30,320 nt of DNA from a virus: positions 1 through 30,320 of the IMG/VR virus record IMGVR_UViG_3300017728_000063; one strand, 5' to 3'. Positions 5,603 to 27,128 of this stretch are shown piece after piece. The position numbers and the translations under genes are program-made. Each line of letters opens with the position of its first letter. The stretch's first letter is position 1. The notes beneath the pieces are model-generated. The model had not been told where the DNA came from and did no database searches. It worked only from the letters and a program-made list of their open reading frames with translations.

Positions 5603-7027
5603 TTAGCCTTTGATAACAACGTGTTGATTTGCAGCACGAGTACATAAAGCAACTTCAGATCGGTAGTGGAACGTAGCAACGTCCTTACCAGCATCTCCGT
5701 TATTGCTGTGACCCAATACACCGCCACCAGTTACCCAGTGCTCCATTTCTCTGTTGTAGCCGTTAGCCTCTTTGTAGTACAAAGCAAGTGAAGGTGCTTT
5801 AGCTCCAGTTCGAGCATCAGCAACCTGGCTCATAGGAATCATAGCTCCTTGGAAAGCGTTAGACGCGCCCAACAAAGTAGGATCGTTCAACAGCTTCCAG
5901 TCATGCTTGTGGAAAGTGTATCCACCACGAGTAAACGACTTAAAGCCAAGCTTTACAGCCATGTCAGAGTCGTTATTAAACGCGCCGAACTGACCAGCCA
6001 AACCAGCAGTAACGCCAGTAGAGATACCTGACGCCAACATGTCGTCAATAGCCAAGTCTTGCTTTCTGTTCAAGTACATAGCGTACTCAGAAGGAGCTCC
6101 TTGCTTGTCGAGTTCAATAATGATGTCATCAAATTCAGCGAATGAATCGAGTGGGTTAGCGTTAGCATTACTTACGTTAATTCCTCTGTCTTCAAGGGCT
6201 GTGAAGTAACCTTCAGATCCAGCCAGGGTCTTTCCGAGGTCGTTGTCACCGTCATCGCTAGCGGTGATTGCGTTCTTTTGACCAAACAGCATCATCATTT
6301 CACGACGGTCTTCAAAGCGCTTTCGTGCTTCTTGCTCACCATACATGAACCATCGGTATTCACCTCCGCCGAGGTCAACCCACCCGATGTTCGTTGCTTG
6401 AGAGCCGTTCACTTGGTAGCGGTCCTTAACAATCATAAATGGATTTTTACGTCTTATGATATCTGAATCAGTAAAGTGAGTCGGCTGATCAGAACCCTGA
6501 GGGTACATATTTCCGAGGTGGATCATTGTAACTCCACTAGCATCTTCGGCTGGAGATGCAGCAAGACCGTCAAGACGCTCCATTTTAAGAACAGGGTCAG
6601 TAGCTGTTGAAGCCTCGTTAACCAAGTATCTTGTTCCAGTGCTTGCGTTCATCAAAACGTCAAACTGCTGAATTAATCCCGCTACGTGAGCAACACCGTC
6701 GCCTGAAGCAGAAGTGTCGATTGTATAAGTAGCAACACCAGGACCAGTAGAGGCGCCAGCGGCTGAGGCCGAAATTGCACCAGTGTATTTTCTGTGACGA
6801 CGACCAGCTTCCCACCAATCAACTTGATCAGCAGTTCCGCCAGCGTTTACCGCGCCAGTAAGTTTTAAAAAGCCAGTGATACCTTGATCACCATATGATT
6901 CGACAAGCTGAGGAATAACGAAATCTTTAGTCGCTTTCAACAGATTGTCTACAGTTGTATATCTCTCAGGAGTCAACCTTAAGTCTGGTGACGCCTGATC
7001 AATAGTAGCTCCAGTTGTAGTAGCCAT
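5603..7027 (-). CDS. Major capsid protein, 474 aa
   Basis: Length, composition and position (after a scaffold-like acidic protein) fit a HK97-fold major capsid protein of the crAss-like/marine podovirus kind. The N-terminal arm (to about residue 60) leads to QVDWWEAGRRHRKYTG. The middle has GGGEYRWFMYGEQEARKRFE and FEDRREMMMLFGQKNAI, a long helix typical of the E-loop/spine region. GYFTALEDRGINVSNANANP and DSFAEFDDIIIELDKQGAPS follow, and the C-terminus is FHYRSEVALCTRAANQHVVI. An F-x-YRSE-x-L-x-x-RAAN-type end is common in capsid proteins of this group. No protease domain or delta-domain is evident. It starts at ATG 7027 with an A-rich leader and is preceded by the 377-residue acidic gene. 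Confidence 0.8.
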   Translation of the reverse strand: MATTTGATIDQASPDLRLTPERYTTVDNLLKATKDFVIPQLVESYGDQGITGFLKLTGAVNAGGTADQVDWWEAGRRHRKYTGAISASAAGASTGPGVATYTIDTSASGDGVAHVAGLIQQFDVLMNASTGTRYLVNEASTATDPVLKMERLDGLAASPAEDASGVTMIHLGNMYPQGSDQPTHFTDSDIIRRKNPFMIVKDRYQVNGSQATNIGWVDLGGGEYRWFMYGEQEARKRFEDRREMMMLFGQKNAITASDDGDNDLGKTLAGSEGYFTALEDRGINVSNANANPLDSFAEFDDIIIELDKQGAPSEYAMYLNRKQDLAIDDMLASGISTGVTAGLAGQFGAFNNDSDMAVKLGFKSFTRGGYTFHKHDWKLLNDPTLLGASNAFQGAMIPMSQVADARTGAKAPSLALYYKEANGYNREMEHWVTGGGVLGHSNNGDAGKDVATFHYRSEVALCTRAANQHVVIKG

Positions 7028-10728: not shown

Positions 10729-11769
10729 TCAAATAATTACATAATTTAATCCTACAGAGAAGTTGTGCCACTCCCTGTTCCAATACTTATGGTATCTGCC
10801 TTCGAGAAACATCCCCAGGCTTTTGTTTAGTTTCCAACCGAAGATCAATCCTCCTGAGTAATCAAACCACTGATCTCCGTCAATAAAGTTCTGATAAGAG
10901 AACTCACTGTCGGAAGCAAGGTGATAGGGAAGGGCATTTGCCCAGCTGTGCAACCAGAAGTCTTTTGTGAAGTGATAGAAATCAAACCCAGCAACAACTG
11001 AGTAGTTCCACTGGCTTGGTAGTTCGCCTCTCTTTCTGTTTACGTAATTTCCAATAACCTCTGGAACCACTACAGACTCCCATACCTCAGAGTTTTCTGC
11101 AACCACATCACCATCGGGATTTAAAAACTCCCCAGTAGTAAAGTCTACATTATACCCTTCCTGTATAGCAAGCTGAGTGTAGTGTATGCTGTTATTTGCT
11201 AGCATCCATTCTCCTAAAGGGTCATACCCGTATGGCTCTGACAGCCTTTGCACAACACCTAGGTTTAGCGACAGCTTCTTGCCCAAGTTGATTCTACCCC
11301 TTTGAGACCCCTCGAAGTAACTTACGTCGGCGAACCCATCCTGCAAGAACTCTACCTTTCCTATCCAGTGCTCCCCTACATATCTTAAAAAGTGATCTTG
11401 ATTTAGGAACTCTATTCCTTGCTGTCTCTGATAGGAACCCTGAAACAAAAACTCAAAACCCTTGATCTTGCCGATTGTAGCTGCGTCGCTATATGATGTT
11501 TCGCTTCCGCTATAGAAGTTGTTGGCTCTATTTTCGTATCCAAACCTAGCTATCTTTCTTACACCTGCTGTGAAAGCATAATCGAATGGGGTCTTAATTA
11601 CGTCTGTTTGCAATGGACCATTAGAAACTGAGAATACATCCACATCAGATACGGAGTTGTTTCCGCTAAACGCTGTGTAGAACGTGGCAAACTTAAATGT
11701 CTTCTTTAAGAACTGAGCCTCAGCAGTAAGGCTAAAAAAACAAAACAATATAGCGAGTAACAGCCTCAT
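10729..11769 (-). CDS. Outer-membrane beta-barrel-like protein, 346 aa
   Basis: A signal peptide (MRLLLAILFCFFSLTAEA, cleavage before Q19) sends the protein out of the cytoplasm. The mature part is rich in aromatic, alternating strands and ends in strands terminated with WNREWHNFSVGLNYVII, close to the aromatic-rich last strand of outer-membrane barrels. Internal stretches such as RQQGIEFLNQDHFLRYVGEH and WQ/F-rich turns repeat through the chain. It overlaps the T9SS cargo gene by four bases (ATGA) and is followed directly by the membrane protein gene. The T9SS partner PorP/SprF often follows cargo genes, but the PorP/SprF N-terminal signature is not seen. The barrel assignment is by pattern. 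I recall related sequences in marine phage collections; their role is unknown. Confidence 0.65.
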   Translation of the reverse strand: MRLLLAILFCFFSLTAEAQFLKKTFKFATFYTAFSGNNSVSDVDVFSVSNGPLQTDVIKTPFDYAFTAGVRKIARFGYENRANNFYSGSETSYSDAATIGKIKGFEFLFQGSYQRQQGIEFLNQDHFLRYVGEHWIGKVEFLQDGFADVSYFEGSQRGRINLGKKLSLNLGVVQRLSEPYGYDPLGEWMLANNSIHYTQLAIQEGYNVDFTTGEFLNPDGDVVAENSEVWESVVVPEVIGNYVNRKRGELPSQWNYSVVAGFDFYHFTKDFWLHSWANALPYHLASDSEFSYQNFIDGDQWFDYSGGLIFGWKLNKSLGMFLEGRYHKYWNREWHNFSVGLNYVII

Positions 11770-13331
11770 CTCTTTACAATCTTTTTGGTTAAAGCTAATT
11801 CTCCATCAACTATCCAGTCAACAAAATAGATTCCGCTTCTTAGTAGATTCATGCTAATAACAGCGGACATAGTTCTTTCAATGACGATTCGTCCATTTAT
11901 ATCCCTTACCCTACAGAGAGATCCAGGAAGAGTAGACACGTAAATCACATTATCGAAAGGATTAGGATAAACGTTCAGATCTTCTACATCGTTTACCTCG
12001 CGGGCAAGGTTTATTGTATACTCGCAAGTCCCGTCATCATCTGTGGCTAATGGGTTGTAGTTATCTGCGTTTAAGTCCGTGCAGCCAGGGACTTCAAACT
12101 GATCGCATATTCCGTCTTGGTCTGTATCGTATAGGCAGTTTCCATCGCAATCATATCCTTCTTCTCCGTACTCACAAGATCCGTCATCAACATTAGAGCC
12201 GATCGTAAAGTTACATGCAGCCTCATCGGTACACCCATTCAAAGGAAAAATGCAGCACTCGTCAATTGGGACGCAAGTGATGTTAGCTAAAGGGTTGTAA
12301 TTCAAGGCTTCTGGAATCATACACCCTACAATAGATTCTATACAGCTTCCATCATCGACAGTTGCAAAAGGGCTGTAATTAATAGCTGTTTCGTCAGTGC
12401 ACCCTAAAACATCGTACACGCACATACTTGGGTTATTTATAGTTGCGCTAGGGTCGTAATTAGAAGCCTCAGAGTCCATGCACCCAACACACGACTCGAA
12501 ATCGCAAGACCCATCATCTACAGTTGCTTCAGGGTCATAATTACAAGCCTCCTCAATAGTGCATCCAGACGGGCACCAAGAAGTAGAAATATTGGGCAAT
12601 ATCTCCACGTATGTGTTGTTGTATGAGTTCTCATCAAACCCAAAGTCCATCCACCAGAACTCAGAACCTCCATTGACATGTAAGAGGTGAAGACTAAGAA
12701 CTCCGTCTACATACACCCTGGGCCATTGCTGAACAGCCATAGAACCAGGAGCCAGGGGGAGATAGCTTTGACTAGTAAAACAAACAGTGTCATTTGTTTG
12801 GCCTAGTATCTGAAACTTTACACAGAACTCAGTTACATCTTCGGTGCCGTGATTGGACATAAATATCGTTGGCTCTAAGTAAGGTCCTAGTAAATCACAA
12901 CCACTTTCGTACAGTACTGTATCTAAGCTAAGATCAATCTCTAGTGGGGGGCACTCGTGTTGATCTGGAATAATAATGGTTGATGAATTATTTAACGTGT
13001 TTACTTCGTATTCATCGTTTACAAGCTCAACAGTTAAGGGGTCACCAAAATTATTGAAATTAAGCCAACCCACACTGAAGGATCTATTACTGCCTGGATT
13101 CAACGGGTAAGTGCCGTCAGAAGTGTCTGGACAAGCTTCGTTTCCGTCTAGCTCGTAGCAGAAGTAATCGCTAACCTCATCACCCTCATTGGTTACGACG
13201 AAGTGAATAGAGTAGTAAGCTATACCGCTAACACACAAGCTATCCGTGTAAAGATCACTTACAATTAAGTCTGGCTGAGATAATGAGAATAAGCTCGTAA
13301 AGGCCATCAAAAAAGCTAACCAGTACTTCAT
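11766..13331 (-). CDS. Secreted T9SS cargo protein with CARDB-like domains and GCTD repeats, 521 aa
   Basis: The signal peptide covers residues 1-18 (SLS before Q19). Residues 20-120 and 130-245 look like two CARDB/Ig-like beta domains (PDLIVSDLYTDSLCVSG; IDLSLDTVLYESGCDLLG). From about 257 to 438 there are six Cys-containing repeats of the type GCTD-x-x-A-x-NY-x-P-x-A-x-x-DDGSC. A DCDGNCLYDTDQDGICD calcium-binding-like element at 394-410 lies among them. Residues ~451-521 are a type-A T9SS sorting domain: NVYPNPFDN, DINGRIVIERT, LLRSGIYFVDW and a basic KKIVKR end. The product should cross the inner membrane by Sec and the outer membrane by the host T9SS, and be anchored or released. It overlaps both neighbours by four bases. 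Unusual in a phage; role unknown. Confidence 0.85.
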   Translation of the reverse strand: MKYWLAFLMAFTSLFSLSQPDLIVSDLYTDSLCVSGIAYYSIHFVVTNEGDEVSDYFCYELDGNEACPDTSDGTYPLNPGSNRSFSVGWLNFNNFGDPLTVELVNDEYEVNTLNNSSTIIIPDQHECPPLEIDLSLDTVLYESGCDLLGPYLEPTIFMSNHGTEDVTEFCVKFQILGQTNDTVCFTSQSYLPLAPGSMAVQQWPRVYVDGVLSLHLLHVNGGSEFWWMDFGFDENSYNNTYVEILPNISTSWCPSGCTIEEACNYDPEATVDDGSCDFESCVGCMDSEASNYDPSATINNPSMCVYDVLGCTDETAINYSPFATVDDGSCIESIVGCMIPEALNYNPLANITCVPIDECCIFPLNGCTDEAACNFTIGSNVDDGSCEYGEEGYDCDGNCLYDTDQDGICDQFEVPGCTDLNADNYNPLATDDDGTCEYTINLAREVNDVEDLNVYPNPFDNVIYVSTLPGSLCRVRDINGRIVIERTMSAVISMNLLRSGIYFVDWIVDGELALTKKIVKR

Positions 13332-15403
13332 TTTTTCGAAATTTTCTTTACAGTGTATCTATCGTTGTACCTAATAACAACCTGATAAAAACCAGAAGGA
13401 AGAGAAGACATATCTAGCTGTCTATCAATAGTTTGAGGAATAACCAATCTACCCAGAACGTTATAAACTTCAGTAGTTATTTTTTTGTCTGTTCTAATGT
13501 TTAGTCTTTTTGAGACTGGATTTGGGTATACCCTTATGGAGCTGTCAAGGTTAAAATCAGCGACGCCTGTTGCTGACCCTTCTTCACAGTACTCATACAG
13601 ATCAACACAAGCATTATCCCATCCTTGCTCACAACAGTAGGGGTCTACTTCGATCACCCAAGAGTAACACAAGTCGTTGGCCCAGTACGGGTCTCCAGGC
13701 TCACCAATACACCCTGCATCATACAGGCAAGACTCGCTGTCTGGGGTGTTTGCATTTTCGTTGTAGTTAGCGGCATCTATGTCCATACAACCAACAACTA
13801 CAGGTATGCACCCGTTGTTATCTACATTGGCAGCTAGGTCAAAGTTGATTGCCTCTGGATCTGTACACCCGAACACGGCCAACTCTTGACAGCTTCCGTC
13901 ATCGAAGTCAGCTTCATACCCCTGAGTGTAGTATTCTAGATATCCAGCCTGCATACAACCAGCGGCGTAGTAGCAACTCTCGTCACTTGTGTTGGCTAAC
14001 TCATTGTAGTTCTGAGCCTCCAGGTCTACACAACCATAAATAAAAGGAAGGCAGCTATTACCGCAGTAAGGGGTAAAATGATACACATTCCACTCTGGAT
14101 TACCGAAAGGCTGTAGTGCGCCCTGACCGTTATCGAAGAAAGGGTTATCACCCTCAATAAGAAGCGTGTCCCCAAAGCTGTTGGTTACAACTACAGCATT
14201 GTGAAGTGTCTGAAACTCAGTTTCCTGTGGGGGCTGTTGTGGACCTCCGATCTCAAAATAGTATATATCAACCTCCTCGTCTGAGTCAAGTGTAAGATCC
14301 CATGACTGAGAAAACTCATCAGGCCCAACAGTAAATATCCACTGCTGTGCACCTTGTGCAACACCAAGGTGAGAGTTACCCCACCCGTCTCCAGCGTCAT
14401 CCTCAAGCGTGATAGTGATCGAGCAAGGACTGATGATGTCTGATATTGTAGCTGTGCTGTCGTAGTTAAAAGACTCAGAGTCCATACAGCCCCAGGTATG
14501 TAAAGTCAAGCAATCAGCAGGCTCAGTAGCCTCTGGGTTGTAATCAACGTAGTCATCATCCATGCATCCCACAACAACCTCCTCGGCAACGCAAGGTTCT
14601 ACAAACACAGCACCTGAGTAGTGAACGTTACCCCCATCAGCAGTAAAAGCTAAATCATCAAGCTCCCATATAATGCTGTCCTCACAAGACGTGATTACTA
14701 CAGCTCCGTCCTGTCCGCCACTGGTAGATCCATTGAGGCCATCCCCGTATGTATCTGTTAGTATTAACTCAAAGCCAAGAGATACGCAGAAATCGTATGT
14801 ATATGTAGATAGCTGATCCCCGAAGTTAAACTGACCTGGAAGCACCTGATCGTAAAACTCACCTACAGCTAGGTTGACAAGAGTAAACCCAGTTTCATTA
14901 GGCCAATTGTCTAGCGTAAGCTCCATAGACACAAACGCTTCTCCTTCTGGGCATTGGCTCACATTACAGCTACCGTTGTCTACTGTAGCCCAAGGGTTGT
15001 AGTTATTTGCCTCTTCTTCCATGCAGCCAAACACTAAGGGGGCGCAAGGCTCCAAGACAAAGGGGATGTTCATTTGAGGTAGAGCAAAGTCGTACACAGC
15101 GGTGTCCAAACCGCAAGTATTGTTTAGACCGAACCAACCCTCACCGAAAGCACAGCATATGCCGTCCCCGAAAGAGTCGTATATAACAAACTCATACTCA
15201 CCAGCTGGCAAGAACACCATGCTGTTAGAGAGAGCGTTGCTAAATAAAACCCCAGAAGACTGAGCGACAACCTCTGGACCGTCGTATATCTCCCAGCTGG
15301 TTTCACCACCATAGAGGTCGCTAAATATAGATACGTTTACCCAGCTTGGCTGAGAAAAGGCAATTGCTGGAAACAGCAATAAAAATATCAGAGTTCTTAT
15401 CAT
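13328..15403 (-). CDS. Secreted T9SS cargo protein with DxxGDG domains and GCTD/GCMD repeats, 691 aa
   Basis: An in-frame ATG exists at 15460 inside the upstream gene. The start at 15403 is chosen because it begins a clean signal peptide (MIRTLIFLLLFPAIAFS before Q18) seven bases after the upstream stop. Three beta domains with DSFGDGICC (~76), DTYGDGLNG (~217) and DDAGDGWGN (~335) are interleaved with seven repeats of the GCMD/GCTD-x-x-A-x-NYN kind (starting near 126, 279, 305, 457, 482, 512 and 538). A Cys cluster, DPYCCEQGWDNACVDLYEYC, lies at 587-606. Residues ~620-691 are a type-A T9SS sorting domain: RVYPNPVSK, NVLGRLVIP, LPSGFYQVV and a basic KKISKK end. Surface display or release by the host T9SS is inferred. 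Its stop overlaps the next cargo gene start by four bases. Confidence 0.85.
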   Translation of the reverse strand: MIRTLIFLLLFPAIAFSQPSWVNVSIFSDLYGGETSWEIYDGPEVVAQSSGVLFSNALSNSMVFLPAGEYEFVIYDSFGDGICCAFGEGWFGLNNTCGLDTAVYDFALPQMNIPFVLEPCAPLVFGCMEEEANNYNPWATVDNGSCNVSQCPEGEAFVSMELTLDNWPNETGFTLVNLAVGEFYDQVLPGQFNFGDQLSTYTYDFCVSLGFELILTDTYGDGLNGSTSGGQDGAVVITSCEDSIIWELDDLAFTADGGNVHYSGAVFVEPCVAEEVVVGCMDDDYVDYNPEATEPADCLTLHTWGCMDSESFNYDSTATISDIISPCSITITLEDDAGDGWGNSHLGVAQGAQQWIFTVGPDEFSQSWDLTLDSDEEVDIYYFEIGGPQQPPQETEFQTLHNAVVVTNSFGDTLLIEGDNPFFDNGQGALQPFGNPEWNVYHFTPYCGNSCLPFIYGCVDLEAQNYNELANTSDESCYYAAGCMQAGYLEYYTQGYEADFDDGSCQELAVFGCTDPEAINFDLAANVDNNGCIPVVVGCMDIDAANYNENANTPDSESCLYDAGCIGEPGDPYWANDLCYSWVIEVDPYCCEQGWDNACVDLYEYCEEGSATGVADFNLDSSIRVYPNPVSKRLNIRTDKKITTEVYNVLGRLVIPQTIDRQLDMSSLPSGFYQVVIRYNDRYTVKKISKK

Positions 15404-15410
15404 ACCGCTG

Positions 15411-15704
15411 TTAACAATTCCACTTCCGTAACGCAAGAGCCTTTCTGGTTGGTTTACCATTAGGCTTCTTCATAGGTCCTTTTACGCCAGACATCCTAGC
15501 GCAGAAAGACTTCCTTCTTTTAGCCGCTTTGCTTCCTTTTTTTAGTTTAGACGGTGGTGTAGTGACAGCAGTTTTAAGGTTACTTCCTGTTTCTCTGTTG
15601 TATTTCCTTACACCTTCAGCCGTTAGTCCTCCAGAACGAGACTTGTGCTTACCCATCTTGAGGCTTACGTTACCCCCCTTTTTATACTTCTTGCAACAGC
15701 GCAT
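15411..15704 (-). CDS. Small basic Cys-containing phage protein (DUF6321-like), 97 aa
   Basis: Starts MRCCKKYKKGGNVSLKMGKH, with the YKKGG tag at residues 7-11. It has a conserved core SRSGGLTAEGVRKYNRETGS and an RRKSFCARMSG followed by GKPTRKALALRKWNC at the C-terminus. The combination GGLT-x-x-G-x-x-x-YNR, RKSFCARM and a terminal RKALALRKWNC recurs in small proteins of marine and cyanophages, recorded from memory as DUF6321. Function is not known; the basic, Cys-containing tail suggests metal or nucleic-acid contact. It is the first gene after a TATATTTG box four bases before its ATG, so it heads the envelope cassette operon. Confidence 0.75.
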   Translation of the reverse strand: MRCCKKYKKGGNVSLKMGKHKSRSGGLTAEGVRKYNRETGSNLKTAVTTPPSKLKKGSKAAKRRKSFCARMSGVKGPMKKPNGKPTRKALALRKWNC

Positions 15705-23300: not shown

Positions 23301-25415
23301 TTAGACCTTATATCGCCTGAAAAAAGTCTTTTCTTTAAAGTCTGACTTTGGTTTTTCTTTTGATTTTTGAGCCGCAAGTAATGCTAACCCAGAGCTAATC
23401 GTTAAGTCAAACTTAGTACGTTTATCTATCTTAAATCCAATCCAATCCTCAAGGGTTTTATTGAAGTACATATTTCCTGTTTCTCCGCTCTCATAATTTA
23501 CGCCAACATGATCGTGAATATACTTCTCTATAGATTGGGCGTGAGACTGTATCACATCCTGAGAGTTAGATGGTATGCCTTTTGTCTTTACGTTTACATG
23601 AGAAGAGCTACTCATGAGATGCCTGGGTCTATCCATCAGGTAACCGTCGTAACCCCTTGACTCAAAGTACCTTACGATACCGTACTTATTGTTTTCTACA
23701 AGTAAAGGATACCCATAATAAAACGCACACATAAGGACATCCTCATAGAATATACTAGCCAGGTCTGGCCGAGAAGCATACTCCACAACAAACATATTAG
23801 AAGGGCGGTTCATGCTAAACTTATTGTACATGTGTAGCGCTCCTTTCGACCCCCTATTATCTACCGTGGCATCTAAATCATAAGAGTCAACACCGCCGCA
23901 ACCGTAGTTTGAAAAAGGGGCAACTTTTTTGTTTCTGTCAAGTTTAGATATATTTCTTTCAGAAGGGTCAGGCATCCAAGAAACCCTAAACCTACCGTTA
24001 GGGGTGGGGGAGAAAACAACTTCCTTGTCTTTTTCCCTCCACGTAAAGTTACCTACAACAACAGGGTTGGGGAAAAGCTCATCGTTGTATTCTATTTGCT
24101 GGTATATCTTACCTATATTAAATAAACTTCCCTCAATGCTGTCTCTAAAGGCTTCGTCCTCGGTAAAGGGAAACTGCCTAGTAACCTCGTTTAGTTCAGA
24201 TGGGTTGTCTTTAAAGGACTTGCGTTCATTCTTGAGATAGGTCTTACTACCAATTTCAATAAGGTCCCCGTCTATACCATGTATGTTTTCGCTCTGGGGT
24301 GGGTCTTCCACAACAGCATTCCCATATATATCGAAGAAACCCTCTAGAGCATCATAAGCTGGTATGAATATCCTATAAAGCCCTGTCTTGGTTCTGTCGT
24401 TATTGTTTCGCTCGTTAGGATCAGAATCATACCACAGACCTTTGTATTCCTCACCCCCTTTATTCATGGGGTTTACCGTACTACCTACAATAGCCTTTCC
24501 GACTACCTTGCGACCTACAATTAAGCAAGTACGCTCAATCCTCCAGGCTTCTCTAATATCGGTTGGTTTTTCCCACTTGCCAGCCTCATCTAGATAAAGC
24601 ATGTGTAGCTTCTCACCGTCATATGCGTTGTTGGTGGTGTTCTTCCAGTTTATCACTGTGTTTAGAGCATCACCCCTGTGTGACGTCTTGTTGTTTTTGG
24701 TGATTCGCTTTGATGGCTCACGAAAAGCAAGCTCCATGCGCGGGTTGGTGGTACCGTCCTGAATAGGCTTGAAGAAGAACGGGTAGCTGCGAAAAATCGC
24801 AACCACCTTCTTCATGAAAATATTTTCTTGCGAGTCTTTACCAGTTTTCGACTGTATACCAAGAAGCTTCTCTTTAACTTGACTAGCTTCATCCACAAGG
24901 ACAGCAGAGCATATATTAGTGTAACCAGAACGACGACACTTAGTATAAAGCTGACCGAAACAACGAGGATCAGCTTCACAAGCAGCCATGTGAGTAAAGA
25001 TTTCTTTTTGGAAAGCAAGGTATGATGGATATCCGATATCAATTTTAGACCACTGTAGAAACATATAATGTCTCCCTGTAATATACGTAGGCTCCCCATT
25101 ATTGTAAAACCATACACCGTCGCGCCTACGCTGAAACTCTTGCTCGATGTAAGAACGAAACTTGTTTCGAAACTCGGCAGGTTTTTCGAACCACTCATCC
25201 ATACTGCGTATCCTACGCATTTCCTCTGGCATAGGTGAGCGCTTCCACAGCTGCAACTTCTTTGGTTGGTCATGGAAGAGAATTTCCGATTTGCTCGGTT
25301 CCTTTGGTAAGACCATGAGTAGCCCATGGAGCTCAACATGCTCTCCCTCTGTACCATTAGGGTCGATCTTAATCCCTTTAGATTCATAACCTTTTATATC
25401 TACTAAAACAGACAT
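23301..25415 (-). CDS. terL: Terminase large subunit, 704 aa
   Basis: The frame opens at 25442 (MPYLFKLNKMSVL), but the ATG at 25415 (MSVLVDIKGYESKGIKIDPN) is chosen. It follows an A/T-rich leader (AAATTAAATAAAATG) like those of neighbouring genes. The ATPase half has an adenine-binding-type NNGEPTYITGRHYMFLQWSK near 105, a deviant Walker A CRRSGYTN at 160-167, Walker B MLYLDE at 272-277 and a coupling motif GSTVNP at 311-316. The nuclease half has GVDSYDLDA with D510, VVEYASRP with E545 and further acidic residues. It packages the genome into the head. This pattern, including CRRSGYT, is close to crAss-like terminases. Confidence 0.93.
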   Translation of the reverse strand: MSVLVDIKGYESKGIKIDPNGTEGEHVELHGLLMVLPKEPSKSEILFHDQPKKLQLWKRSPMPEEMRRIRSMDEWFEKPAEFRNKFRSYIEQEFQRRRDGVWFYNNGEPTYITGRHYMFLQWSKIDIGYPSYLAFQKEIFTHMAACEADPRCFGQLYTKCRRSGYTNICSAVLVDEASQVKEKLLGIQSKTGKDSQENIFMKKVVAIFRSYPFFFKPIQDGTTNPRMELAFREPSKRITKNNKTSHRGDALNTVINWKNTTNNAYDGEKLHMLYLDEAGKWEKPTDIREAWRIERTCLIVGRKVVGKAIVGSTVNPMNKGGEEYKGLWYDSDPNERNNNDRTKTGLYRIFIPAYDALEGFFDIYGNAVVEDPPQSENIHGIDGDLIEIGSKTYLKNERKSFKDNPSELNEVTRQFPFTEDEAFRDSIEGSLFNIGKIYQQIEYNDELFPNPVVVGNFTWREKDKEVVFSPTPNGRFRVSWMPDPSERNISKLDRNKKVAPFSNYGCGGVDSYDLDATVDNRGSKGALHMYNKFSMNRPSNMFVVEYASRPDLASIFYEDVLMCAFYYGYPLLVENNKYGIVRYFESRGYDGYLMDRPRHLMSSSSHVNVKTKGIPSNSQDVIQSHAQSIEKYIHDHVGVNYESGETGNMYFNKTLEDWIGFKIDKRTKFDLTISSGLALLAAQKSKEKPKSDFKEKTFFRRYKV

Positions 25416-25466
25416 TTTATTTAATTTAAAAAGGTATGGCATATGTTGGCCTCCCTTTTTATGTAG

Positions 25467-25540
25467 TACACCAGACAGGATTCGAACCTGTGGCCGTCTG
25501 CTTAGAAGGCAGATGCTCTATCCAACTGAGCTACTGGTGC
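25467..25540 (-). tRNA. tRNA-Arg, anticodon UCU
   Basis: Reverse complement folds as a complete cloverleaf of 74 nt. The acceptor stem is GCACCAG/CTGGTGT with a G-U first pair, the D arm is GCTC/GAGC, and the anticodon stem is TCTGC/GCAGA with loop CTTCTAA. The T arm is ACAGG/CCTGT with TTCGAAT, and the discriminator is A. The anticodon UCU (25504-25506) reads AGA and AGG. No 3' CCA is encoded. The first ten bases overlap the 3' end of the HNH gene. Confidence 0.96.
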
Positions 25541-25878
25541 GTTCTTCTTTCGTGTGTTTTTTTACGATGGCAATTTGCGCACCTTACCTCACATTTCCTG
25601 ATCTCTTTCTTTATTGTTTCGATGCAGTAGGACCAACGAACCATATCTGATATATTACCTCTTTTACTGCCCTTTACATGATCAAACTCAAGAACGACAG
25701 GGTTATTTTCTCCGCAATCAACGCAATTAAACATCCGTTTTACCCTCCAGACAAATTCTTTATTTTTTTTTCTTTGAGATGTATTCCTTCTCTTTGACCT
25801 AGCCTTTACTTTTTCGCAATTATCCTTATAGTGTTTGGCCCCCGCCCTAGCCTGATCTTCTTTCTTTTTATAGGCCAT
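25531..25878 (-). CDS. HNH endonuclease, 115 aa
   Basis: A basic N-terminus (KKKEDQARAGAKHYKDNC) is followed by a zinc-stabilised HNH core: CVDC at 52-55, LEFDHVKG at 63-70 with the catalytic D66-H67, and CANCHRKK at 100-107. These C-x2-C and D-H and C-x2-C-H features define small free-standing phage HNH nucleases. Such genes act as homing endonucleases or assist DNA packaging next to the terminase. Its last codons, THQ and TAG, are the first bases of the tRNA acceptor stem. The gene begins 13 bases after the stop of the small 53-residue gene. Confidence 0.9.
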   Translation of the reverse strand: MAYKKKEDQARAGAKHYKDNCEKVKARSKRRNTSQRKKNKEFVWRVKRMFNCVDCGENNPVVLEFDHVKGSKRGNISDMVRWSYCIETIKKEIRKCEVRCANCHRKKTHERRTHQ

Positions 25879-25891
25879 TCTAGAATTATTG

Positions 25892-26053
25892 TTACTTAGA
25901 CTTACTGATCTTAAAGTTTACCTTTAAGTGATCTACAGTAACTGACTGATTATCAAAGTTATAGTCATCCCAATATATTAAACCGCTGGCTTCATTTAGA
26001 GAATCTTTCTGCGAATCCTCCTGAGTAGTCTTTGTCTTGTTCGATTTCTCCAT
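25892..26053 (-). CDS. Small hypothetical protein, 53 aa (hidden, out-of-frame overlap)
   Basis: An ATG at 26053 opens MEKSNKTKTTQEDSQKDSLN and runs 53 codons to TAA at 25892-25894, ending VDHLKVNFKISKSK. The first third lies within the 3' end of the candidate small terminase gene in a different frame. The rest explains the 113 bases between that gene and the HNH gene. It has an acidic/polar N-terminus and a GLIYWDDYNFDNQSVTV strand-like middle. Coding is supported by the clean open frame across an otherwise gene-free gap and a plausible start; no homologue is recognised. Confidence 0.55.
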   Translation of the reverse strand: MEKSNKTKTTQEDSQKDSLNEASGLIYWDDYNFDNQSVTVDHLKVNFKISKSK

Positions 26054-26543: not shown

Positions 26544-27128
26544 TTAAATTTCTTTGTAAAGTAAATCCTCAACCCTCGTCCTGTAGTATTCCTTACCGTC
26601 GATGGTAATTCTGTAGTCACGGTTTTCTTTGAATCCAACTACATCACCTACGGAGAGTCCTATTTCTTCAATCCCAGAACTCGTAAATGCGACTCTACCC
26701 CTTGTTGGTAGTTTCTCTTCAAGTTTAACAACCTCAATAATCGACGACTCTTGAACTTCCTCTTCTTCGATGGGTTCAAGAAGGCTCCAACCCGCGAGGG
26801 GATGGACATCACCAGTGTCGCTATCTTTAAAAGCAATAGCTTGATTATTAATAGCGTAATCTTCATCATACTTGACAAGGTAGTGATTGTCATCACCAGT
26901 AAGTGGCTGGCCTTCATTGATAACCACGAGGTGGTGGAAGTAAAGCGTGTCGCCAGGCTTGACGCCAGTTTCGTACTTAAAAGGGACAGAGACGACAGGG
27001 CCTTCTGTGATTCTGTTTTCAAATTCATTGAATCTATTGTCTATATAAAGTTCTAGACCACCACTCGTTGTGATGGTGTCGTCTATTGTCTTGTCTAACT
27101 CGACAACAAACAAATTAAAAGTCCTCAT
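26544..27128 (-). CDS. GroES-like double-domain co-chaperonin-type protein, 194 aa
   Basis: The first half (residues 1-115) holds LELYID near 25, the GPVVSVPF strand near 43 and VKPGDTLYFHHLVV near 57, the GroES pattern of 'G-x-V-x-x-P ... V-x-x-GD-x-V-x-F'. The second half (~142-194) repeats it: RGRVAFTSSG, GLSVGDVVGFKENRDYRITI and DGKEYYRTRVEDLLYK, matching the GroES C-terminal 'GEEY-x-x-x-x-EDIL' end. An acidic linker lies between (EPIEEEEVQESS). Such proteins help fold capsid proteins with a host GroEL. No GroEL is encoded here. It begins three bases after the preceding stop with an A/T-rich leader. Confidence 0.65.
   Translation of the reverse strand: MRTFNLFVVELDKTIDDTITTSGGLELYIDNRFNEFENRITEGPVVSVPFKYETGVKPGDTLYFHHLVVINEGQPLTGDDNHYLVKYDEDYAINNQAIAFKDSDTGDVHPLAGWSLLEPIEEEEVQESSIIEVVKLEEKLPTRGRVAFTSSGIEEIGLSVGDVVGFKENRDYRITIDGKEYYRTRVEDLLYKEI

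What the first reader, a model, noticed from the sequence alone, without database searches (positions are those of the whole stretch)
25467..25878. HNH endonuclease gene overlaps a phage tRNA-Arg(UCU)
The last codons of the HNH gene (THQ-stop) are the first ten bases of the tRNA. Processing the tRNA would therefore cut the HNH mRNA's end, and the HNH may home near tRNA genes. The tRNA reads AGA/AGG, and in the partial gene at 1-1292 13 of 15 Arg codons are AGA or AGG, so it supports late translation.
Basis: partly seen in the sequence, partly recalled or inferred. Interest (0 to 1): 0.6.

Follow-up and report, generated by a model that had tools for sequence, protein, structure and literature searches.

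The report
Homing nuclease gene ending inside tRNA
A small phage HNH nuclease gene has slotted in exactly at the start of a tRNA gene and uses the tRNA's own nucleotides 8-10 as its stop codon; the same nuclease family sits against tRNA genes in many unrelated phages, and following it led to an apparently undescribed kind of tRNA.

Summary
The HNH ORF (25531-25878, minus) overlaps tRNA-Arg(UCU) by exactly 10 nt, and its TAG stop is U8-A9-G10 of the tRNA. Relatives show a patchily distributed, mobile-looking gene placed precisely at the tRNA 5' end. In the three nearest HNH-less phages, homology resumes at tRNA nucleotide 1 and a tRNA-Met fills the slot. In another set the HNH lies between a variant tRNA-Met and tRNA-Arg. 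HNH and terminase trees conflict, and dN/dS is about 0.1.

Of 65 unique relatives, 33 end at a tRNA start, against 2 of 352 control ORFs. Eight sampled isolate phages also carry it in tRNA arrays. It is best read as a free-standing tRNA-gene HNH homing endonuclease, comparable to T4 SegB but of another nuclease family. Cleavage and mRNA severing by RNase P are inferred. The overlap itself is not HNH-specific: other ORFs here also end in tRNAs. The codon argument fails.

The larger by-product is a non-canonical tRNA scaffold abutting many HNH relatives, with the anticodon arm nested in the D-stem. It shows strong covariation, carries only Ile/Met and Arg anticodons, and at two loci stands where a relative has a canonical tRNA with the same anticodon. 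I found no description of it.

The parts
25531..25878 (-). HNH endonuclease ORF, 115 aa, long N-terminal helix plus CxxC-DH-CxxCH beta-beta-alpha nuclease core
   Evidence: PHROG 2255 E 3.8e-26; invariant C52 C55 D66 H67 C100 N102 C103 H104 across 16 relatives; AlphaFold pLDDT 92.4; dN/dS 0.084-0.087 against its nearest relatives
25466..25540 (-). canonical tRNA-Arg(UCU), no encoded CCA
25531..25540 (-). 10-nt overlap: tRNA nt 1-10 = last base of ACG, CAC, CAG and the HNH stop TAG (25533-25531 = U8 A9 G10)
25541..25906 (-). HNH cassette that occupies the place of tRNA-Met in the nearest relatives L002-L004
   Evidence: homology to L002-L004 stops at 25907 and resumes at 25540
25892..26053 (-). 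small upstream ORF ('IYWDDY' protein); in HNH-less relatives this ORF itself runs into tRNA-Met or tRNA-Arg
23301..25442 (-). terminase large subunit just downstream of the tRNA (the conserved start is probably 25415), used as phylogenetic yardstick
   Evidence: PHROG 6681 E 8.7e-210

Best explanation
The gene is a free-standing HNH homing endonuclease of a family that lives in phage tRNA regions. It has been inserted exactly at the 5' boundary of tRNA-Arg(UCU), so the tRNA stays whole and its conserved U8-A9-G10 supplies the HNH stop codon. Inferred mechanism: the enzyme cuts or nicks an HNH-less tRNA gene or tandem-tRNA junction of a co-infecting relative, and repair from the HNH+ genome copies the gene with flanking DNA, sometimes with or in place of the neighbouring tRNA-Met; insertion splits its own target. 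Because both genes share a transcript, RNase P cleavage at tRNA nucleotide 1 would remove the HNH stop codon, so a transcript that yields the tRNA would yield little HNH. Shown: position, precision, patchiness, tree conflict, purifying selection and association with tRNA starts. Inferred: a shared transcript, cleavage, homing and mRNA severing.
For: Overlap verified. HNH patchy on the terminase tree: 5 changes, at least 4 forced, 0 of 500 shuffles as low, window nested among HNH-less L002-L004. Homology to L002-L004 ends at 25907 and resumes at 25540 = tRNA G1; a tRNA-Met fills the slot there. In group B the HNH lies in the spacer between a variant tRNA-Met and tRNA-Arg; among loci with a tRNA-Met, 6 of 6 with the variant carry this HNH and 0 of 13 with the ordinary one do. 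Tree conflict: HNH rejects the terminase clade L058+L060+L065 (AU p 6e-4); terminase rejects window+L065+L044 (p 8.6e-5) and L019+L058 (p 1e-57). dN/dS 0.084-0.125. 33 of 65 unique relatives end at a tRNA start against 2 of 352 control ORFs. Isolate phages nickie, ArcherS7, Lacusarx, D254, Tribute, Vetrix, LilhomieP and wV8 carry it in tRNA arrays. Empty-site comparison in isolates: TomSawyer's HNH (47% to this one) is inserted at the tRNA 5' end where Yaboi and Karimac have none.
Against: No cleavage, transfer or transcript data. Running into a tRNA is not special to the HNH: unrelated ORFs here do it, so the overlap may be compaction rather than regulation. In group A a tRNA-Met is missing, so the event was a replacement, not a clean insertion. 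32 of 65 relatives, mostly below 54% identity, are not next to a detected tRNA. AU groups were named after seeing the trees. Several loci come from related metagenome contigs.
Confidence: 0.75

Rival explanations
1. Plain modular recombination: the tRNA gene is a conserved joint at which phages swap neighbouring modules, and the HNH is a passenger rather than the driver. The stop inside the tRNA is a by-product of joining any ORF to a tRNA.
For: The slot 5' of tRNA-Arg holds many alternatives: nothing, tRNA-Met, HNH, another HNH (L055), a non-canonical tRNA (L073, L080). Homology between window and L083 also breaks just past the tRNA 3' end. Unrelated ORFs end in the same tRNAs.
Against: The HNH family is tied to tRNA starts in phages of Pseudomonas, Mycobacterium, Streptomyces, Vibrio, Escherichia and Sphingobium hosts, which a mere passenger would not be. 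Its nuclease residues are invariant.
Confidence: 0.35
2. The overlap is selected as a regulatory switch: RNase P cleavage and ribosomes terminating at tRNA nt 8-10 compete, keeping HNH low or coupling it to tRNA supply.
For: The same 10-nt overlap is kept in every tRNA-overlapping copy of the group and in remote copies. Transcript processing by RNase E is proposed to lower free-standing endonuclease transcripts in T4 (segB, segG; PMC2988022).
Against: Copies beside the non-canonical tRNA, which has U8-A9-U10 and so no stop there, carry their own stop directly before the tRNA; L115 also has its own stop before a canonical tRNA. The stop is borrowed when available, not required. No expression data.
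Confidence: 0.2
3. The tRNA is kept chiefly to read AGA/AGG late genes and the HNH is incidental.
For: AGA+AGG is 67% of Arg codons in the window; AGG is 29% against 14% in a host proxy.
Against: Host proxy AGA+AGG is 74%, higher than the phage; the head/structural gene at 5603-7027 uses only 8 of 22.
Confidence: 0.15

Closest known systems
T4 SegB (GIY-YIG homing endonuclease in the tRNA-Arg/tRNA-Ile intergenic region; PMC2988022, PMC13096335)
   Same: Free-standing endonuclease gene inside a phage tRNA region next to tRNA-Arg; SegB cuts within tRNA genes and is tied to spread of the region; transcript processing proposed to limit its level.
   Different: HNH not GIY-YIG, 115 aa; the 3' end of the ORF is part of the tRNA; no cleavage shown.
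T-even Mob HNH endonucleases (mobE and others)
   Same: Free-standing HNH homing genes between phage genes; overlapping neighbour ORFs are common.
   Different: Mob genes carry a separate C-terminal DNA-binding region and overlap protein genes, not tRNAs.
PHROG 2255 small HNH endonucleases
   Same: Direct profile match; relatives sampled here (nickie, ArcherS7, wV8 and others) sit in tRNA arrays.
   Different: Family definition says nothing about tRNA targeting; the exact 10-nt overlap is a feature of some members.
HEGs as boundaries of genetic exchange (PMC10448857)
   Same: The slot marks where phage genomes switch modules.
   Different: That paper treats mainly protein-gene neighbours; a text search of it found tRNA mentioned only in satellite integration and the SegB reference.

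Membership tests
HNH endonuclease (PHROG 2255) | Profile match over the nuclease core | tested here: met
   E 3.8e-26, residues 6-113
HNH endonuclease (PHROG 2255) | Conserved His/Asn/His and zinc cysteines | tested here: met
   C52 C55 H67 C100 N102 C103 H104 invariant in 16 relatives
HNH endonuclease (PHROG 2255) | beta-beta-alpha metal fold matching a solved HNH structure | tested here: inconclusive
   Confident model with strand-strand-helix order, but best PDB match is a weak one, Cap5, E 0.65; no Pfam hit
Free-standing homing endonuclease gene | Patchy presence at one site, with empty-site relatives | tested here: met
   isolates TomSawyer against Yaboi and Karimac
Free-standing homing endonuclease gene | Horizontal movement relative to neighbours | tested here: met
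   HNH and terminase trees reject each other's groups; groups named after seeing the trees
Free-standing homing endonuclease gene | Cuts HNH-less alleles at or near the insertion site and is over-inherited | not testable with these tools
   needs enzyme and mixed infection
SegB family | GIY-YIG nuclease domain | tested here: not met
   the match is HNH
Canonical bacterial-type tRNA-Arg(UCU) | Cloverleaf detected by covariance model, anticodon UCU | tested here: met
   ARAGORN, Rfam 74 bits

The most novel reading that the evidence does not exclude
The HNH family is a tRNA-gene-specific mobile nuclease found in very different phages, placed at tRNA 5' ends, borrowing a stop codon from the tRNA where it can, and sometimes travelling with or replacing tRNA genes. 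Many of its relatives abut an undescribed class of functional tRNA in which the anticodon arm is nested inside the D-stem and the D-loop lies 3' of it, and which replaces canonical tRNAs of the same anticodon. The second part concerns related loci, not the window.
Probability: 0.6. Interest if true: 0.85.

Novelty: new variant of a known kind. Interest (0 to 1): 0.55.

Why it matters
It links a widespread small HNH family to tRNA genes as insertion sites and shows a simple way for an inserted gene to leave a tRNA intact: end inside it and use U8-A9-G10 as stop. Gene callers that mask tRNAs may miss such ORFs; the HNH is unannotated in nickie and Lacusarx. Following it exposed a tRNA architecture that ARAGORN misses and that the Rfam tRNA model, where scored, places below its threshold. 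If it is used in translation, it would add a new topology to tRNA structure and change the counted tRNA sets of many phages, including isolates with laboratory hosts.

Tried and rejected
Codon argument tested and rejected. The overlap as unique to HNH rejected. Degenerate tRNA-Met remnant upstream of the window's HNH: no convincing similarity in the alignment. Pfam gave no hit for the HNH; Foldseek against PDB only weak HNH (Cap5) matches. A shared DNA target motif across tRNAs was not derived; the common 'GTAGNTCAG' D-arm sequence is only a guess. HNH data do not reject L012+L018 (p 0.30) or L058+L060 (p 0.15) as clades, so those are not claimed as transfers. For the by-product: chance hits of the DNA pattern (L287, L293, L318, L327, L350, L352) were removed by an acceptor/T-arm pairing score. 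Literature searches and the review PMC7609411, which covers tRNA-Sec, allo-tRNA, tRNA-Pyl and mitochondrial tRNAs, did not yield this topology. Only open-licence papers were searchable. The segB homing paper PMC2330249 is not held.

Full report
WHAT IS THERE. The window is a 30.3-kb IMG/VR virus record whose terminase and portal match PHROG 6681 and 6547. The nearest cultured relatives by terminase infect Flavobacterium and Cellulophaga; identity to any catalogued phage is 45% or less. On the minus strand lies a small ORF (25892-26053), then the HNH ORF (25531-25878), then tRNA-Arg(UCU) (25466-25540), then the terminase. The last 10 nt of the HNH ORF are tRNA nucleotides 1-10, and its TAG stop is U8-A9-G10. 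The tRNA is a good canonical cloverleaf (Rfam 74 bits). The HNH protein has invariant C52-C55, D66-H67 and C100-N102-C103-H104 in 16 relatives, a confident model (pLDDT 92.4) and dN/dS of 0.084-0.087 against its two nearest relatives, so it is a maintained nuclease.

RELATIVES AND EMPTY SITES. Eighty loci were fetched by terminase and eighty by HNH. Most terminase relatives carry tRNA-Arg(UCU) just upstream; 10 of 54 rows on the tree carry this HNH, scattered, with at least four forced changes. The window sits beside L002, L003 and L004, which lack it. Against them, homology ends at 25907 and resumes at 25540, nucleotide 1 of tRNA-Arg; the slot there holds a tRNA-Met separated from tRNA-Arg by two bases. 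In a second set (L012, L019, L021, L022, L058) the HNH lies between a variant tRNA-Met and tRNA-Arg, starting 3-4 nt after the former. HNH and terminase trees conflict (AU p 6e-4 in one direction, 8.6e-5 and 1e-57 in the other; groups chosen after seeing the trees). L083 matches the window at 93% through HNH and tRNA, then breaks just past the tRNA 3' end and resumes in the terminase at 88%.

THE OVERLAP. The HNH keeps its own reading frame into the tRNA: 16 unique copies end at nt 8-10 of tRNA-Arg and 3 remoter ones at nt 8-10 of tRNA-Met, one of them Pseudomonas phage nickie. It is not a private feature of the HNH. The small 'WDDY' ORF ends at the same place in tRNA-Met or tRNA-Arg when the HNH is absent, and an HNH ORF in L055 that tblastn with this HNH did not find ends there too. 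Where the HNH precedes a tRNA with U8-A9-U10, which offers no stop, its own stop codon lies directly before the tRNA. So the ORF borrows the tRNA's stop when one is on offer.

THE FAMILY LIVES AT tRNAs. Of 65 unique HNH relatives in IMG/VR, 33 end within -60..+15 nt of a tRNA start (30 of 40 at 54% identity or more), against 2 of 352 other ORFs in the same loci (Fisher 2e-28; related contigs make this too optimistic). Eight isolate phages of Pseudomonas, Sphingobium, Vibrio, Streptomyces, Mycobacterium and Escherichia hosts carry it in tRNA regions; a ninth (Mandalore) has a tRNA-Asp 175 nt upstream and none found downstream. In ArcherS7 it overlaps tRNA-Trp by 49 nt; in D254, Tribute and wV8 it ends 3-14 nt before a tRNA. 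In Streptomyces phage TomSawyer an HNH 47% identical to this one is inserted at the 5' end of a tRNA and runs about 43 nt into it, while Yaboi and Karimac have no HNH there.

MECHANISM. Best reading: free-standing homing endonuclease that targets tRNA genes, comparable to T4 SegB, which sits between tRNA-Arg and tRNA-Ile and cuts within tRNA genes (PMC2988022; PMC13096335). It is not a member of that family, being HNH rather than GIY-YIG. RNase P cleavage at G1 would strip the HNH stop codon; this follows from the overlap and established tRNA processing but is not shown. The codon argument fails: AGA+AGG is 67% in the window (8 of 22 in the head/structural gene at 5603-7027) against 74% in a Flavobacteriales proxy; the real host is unknown.

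BY-PRODUCT: A NON-CANONICAL tRNA CLASS. Thirteen unique HNH relatives directly abut a 77-nt element that ARAGORN does not see; where scored ('tikkala'), the Rfam tRNA model gives 24.5 bits against a gathering score of 29. Layout: 7-bp acceptor, TA, T-C-Y-C, CT, a 4-bp anticodon stem with 7-nt loop, six bases, G-R-G closing the D-stem around the anticodon arm, then TA-R-NN-GG...ACA-Y, a 5-bp T-arm, the acceptor and a purine at position 73. RNAalifold recovers this on 45 sequences without being told. 98.0% of cells pair against 67.1% after shuffling and 37-47% with the 3' partner slid; cells changed on both sides number 288 against 86.5. A pair equivalent to the R15-Y48 contact also covaries (AU 34, GC 8). 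Rows had been filtered on acceptor and T-arm pairing, but not on the anticodon stem, D-stem or that contact. D-stems outside the search pattern covary too: ACC/GGT in Karimac and, by eye, CGA/TCG in L111. Anticodons are only UAU, GAU and CAU (all A73) and UCU, UCG, ACG and CCU (A or G73), in loops like those of normal tRNA-Ile and tRNA-Arg. Covariance scores are 76-98 bits for true copies (43 for the L111 variant) and at most 30 for canonical tRNAs.

Two further facts speak for function. First, among 48 loci with at least four canonical tRNAs only 3 also hold a canonical tRNA with the same anticodon (no null computed). Second, there are same-site swaps. Karimac has a canonical tRNA-Arg(CCU) where Yaboi has the non-canonical form with the same acceptor strand GTCTCCA and the same anticodon. 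crAss001 has a canonical tRNA-Ile(GAU) where 'tikkala' has the non-canonical GAU form. In the exact-pattern scan of 84,980 bacterial and archaeal species genomes one contig matched, in a Cryomorphaceae MAG; with the covariance model, 1 of 52 genomes of that family matched, the same MAG. It therefore looks phage-borne. No charging or expression data exist here, and only open-licence papers could be searched.

SCORES. The finding itself (HNH ending in a tRNA, tRNA-tied homing family) deserves about 0.45; the by-product reached through it would deserve 0.85 if the RNA is charged. Overall 0.55.

Noticed in passing
L090 449-525, L073 3520-3596, L283 2495-2571 (OQ198717.1 'tikkala'), L372 901-977 (NC_048730.1 Yaboi), L371 589-665 (MH590599.1 Karimac) and over 100 other copies: Undescribed tRNA scaffold: anticodon arm nested inside the D-stem, D-loop-like GG 3' of it, strong covariation, anticodons UAU/GAU/CAU and UCU/UCG/ACG/CCU only; orthologous swaps with canonical tRNAs of the same anticodon (Karimac/Yaboi CCU, crAss001/tikkala GAU). 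Missed by ARAGORN and not annotated as tRNA in the records examined..
   Followed up: yes
L111 482-1075: A non-canonical tRNA appears split in its anticodon loop by an insert holding an HNH/endonuclease VII-like ORF and a second non-canonical tRNA-Ile(UAU); the displaced 3' half follows. It looks like an invading element that brings a replacement tRNA.
   Followed up: partly
L002-L070, L024-L062 and others, small ORF and membrane-protein-like ORF upstream of the tRNAs: In this phage group ORFs next to the tRNA cluster often end inside the tRNA, at nt 8-10 or in the D-loop, whatever the gene.
   Followed up: yes
L055 4296-4725: An HNH ORF not found by tblastn with the window's HNH lies between tRNA-Met and tRNA-Arg and also ends at TAG of tRNA nt 8-10.
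   Followed up: partly
window 25415-25442: The terminase ORF as called starts at 25442, but homology to relatives starts at about 25415 (MSVLVDIKGY...), so the true start is probably the inner ATG.
   Followed up: partly
window 26544-27128: Phage-encoded GroES-like co-chaperonin (Cpn10, E 4.2e-07; PHROG 13932); a GroES gene also lies beside the terminase in Flavobacterium phage elemoA.
   Followed up: no
window 11766-15460: Two long ORFs with repeated Cys-rich 'GCTDxxAxNYxxxAxxDDGSC' units and a C-terminal tail resembling type IX secretion sorting signals (from memory, not tested), odd for phage proteins.
   Followed up: no
MG018927.1 770-1276 and KY629563.1 about 69636-69992: Clear HNH ORFs are unannotated in Pseudomonas phage nickie and Sphingobium phage Lacusarx; in nickie the ORF overlaps an annotated tRNA-Met.
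   Followed up: yes
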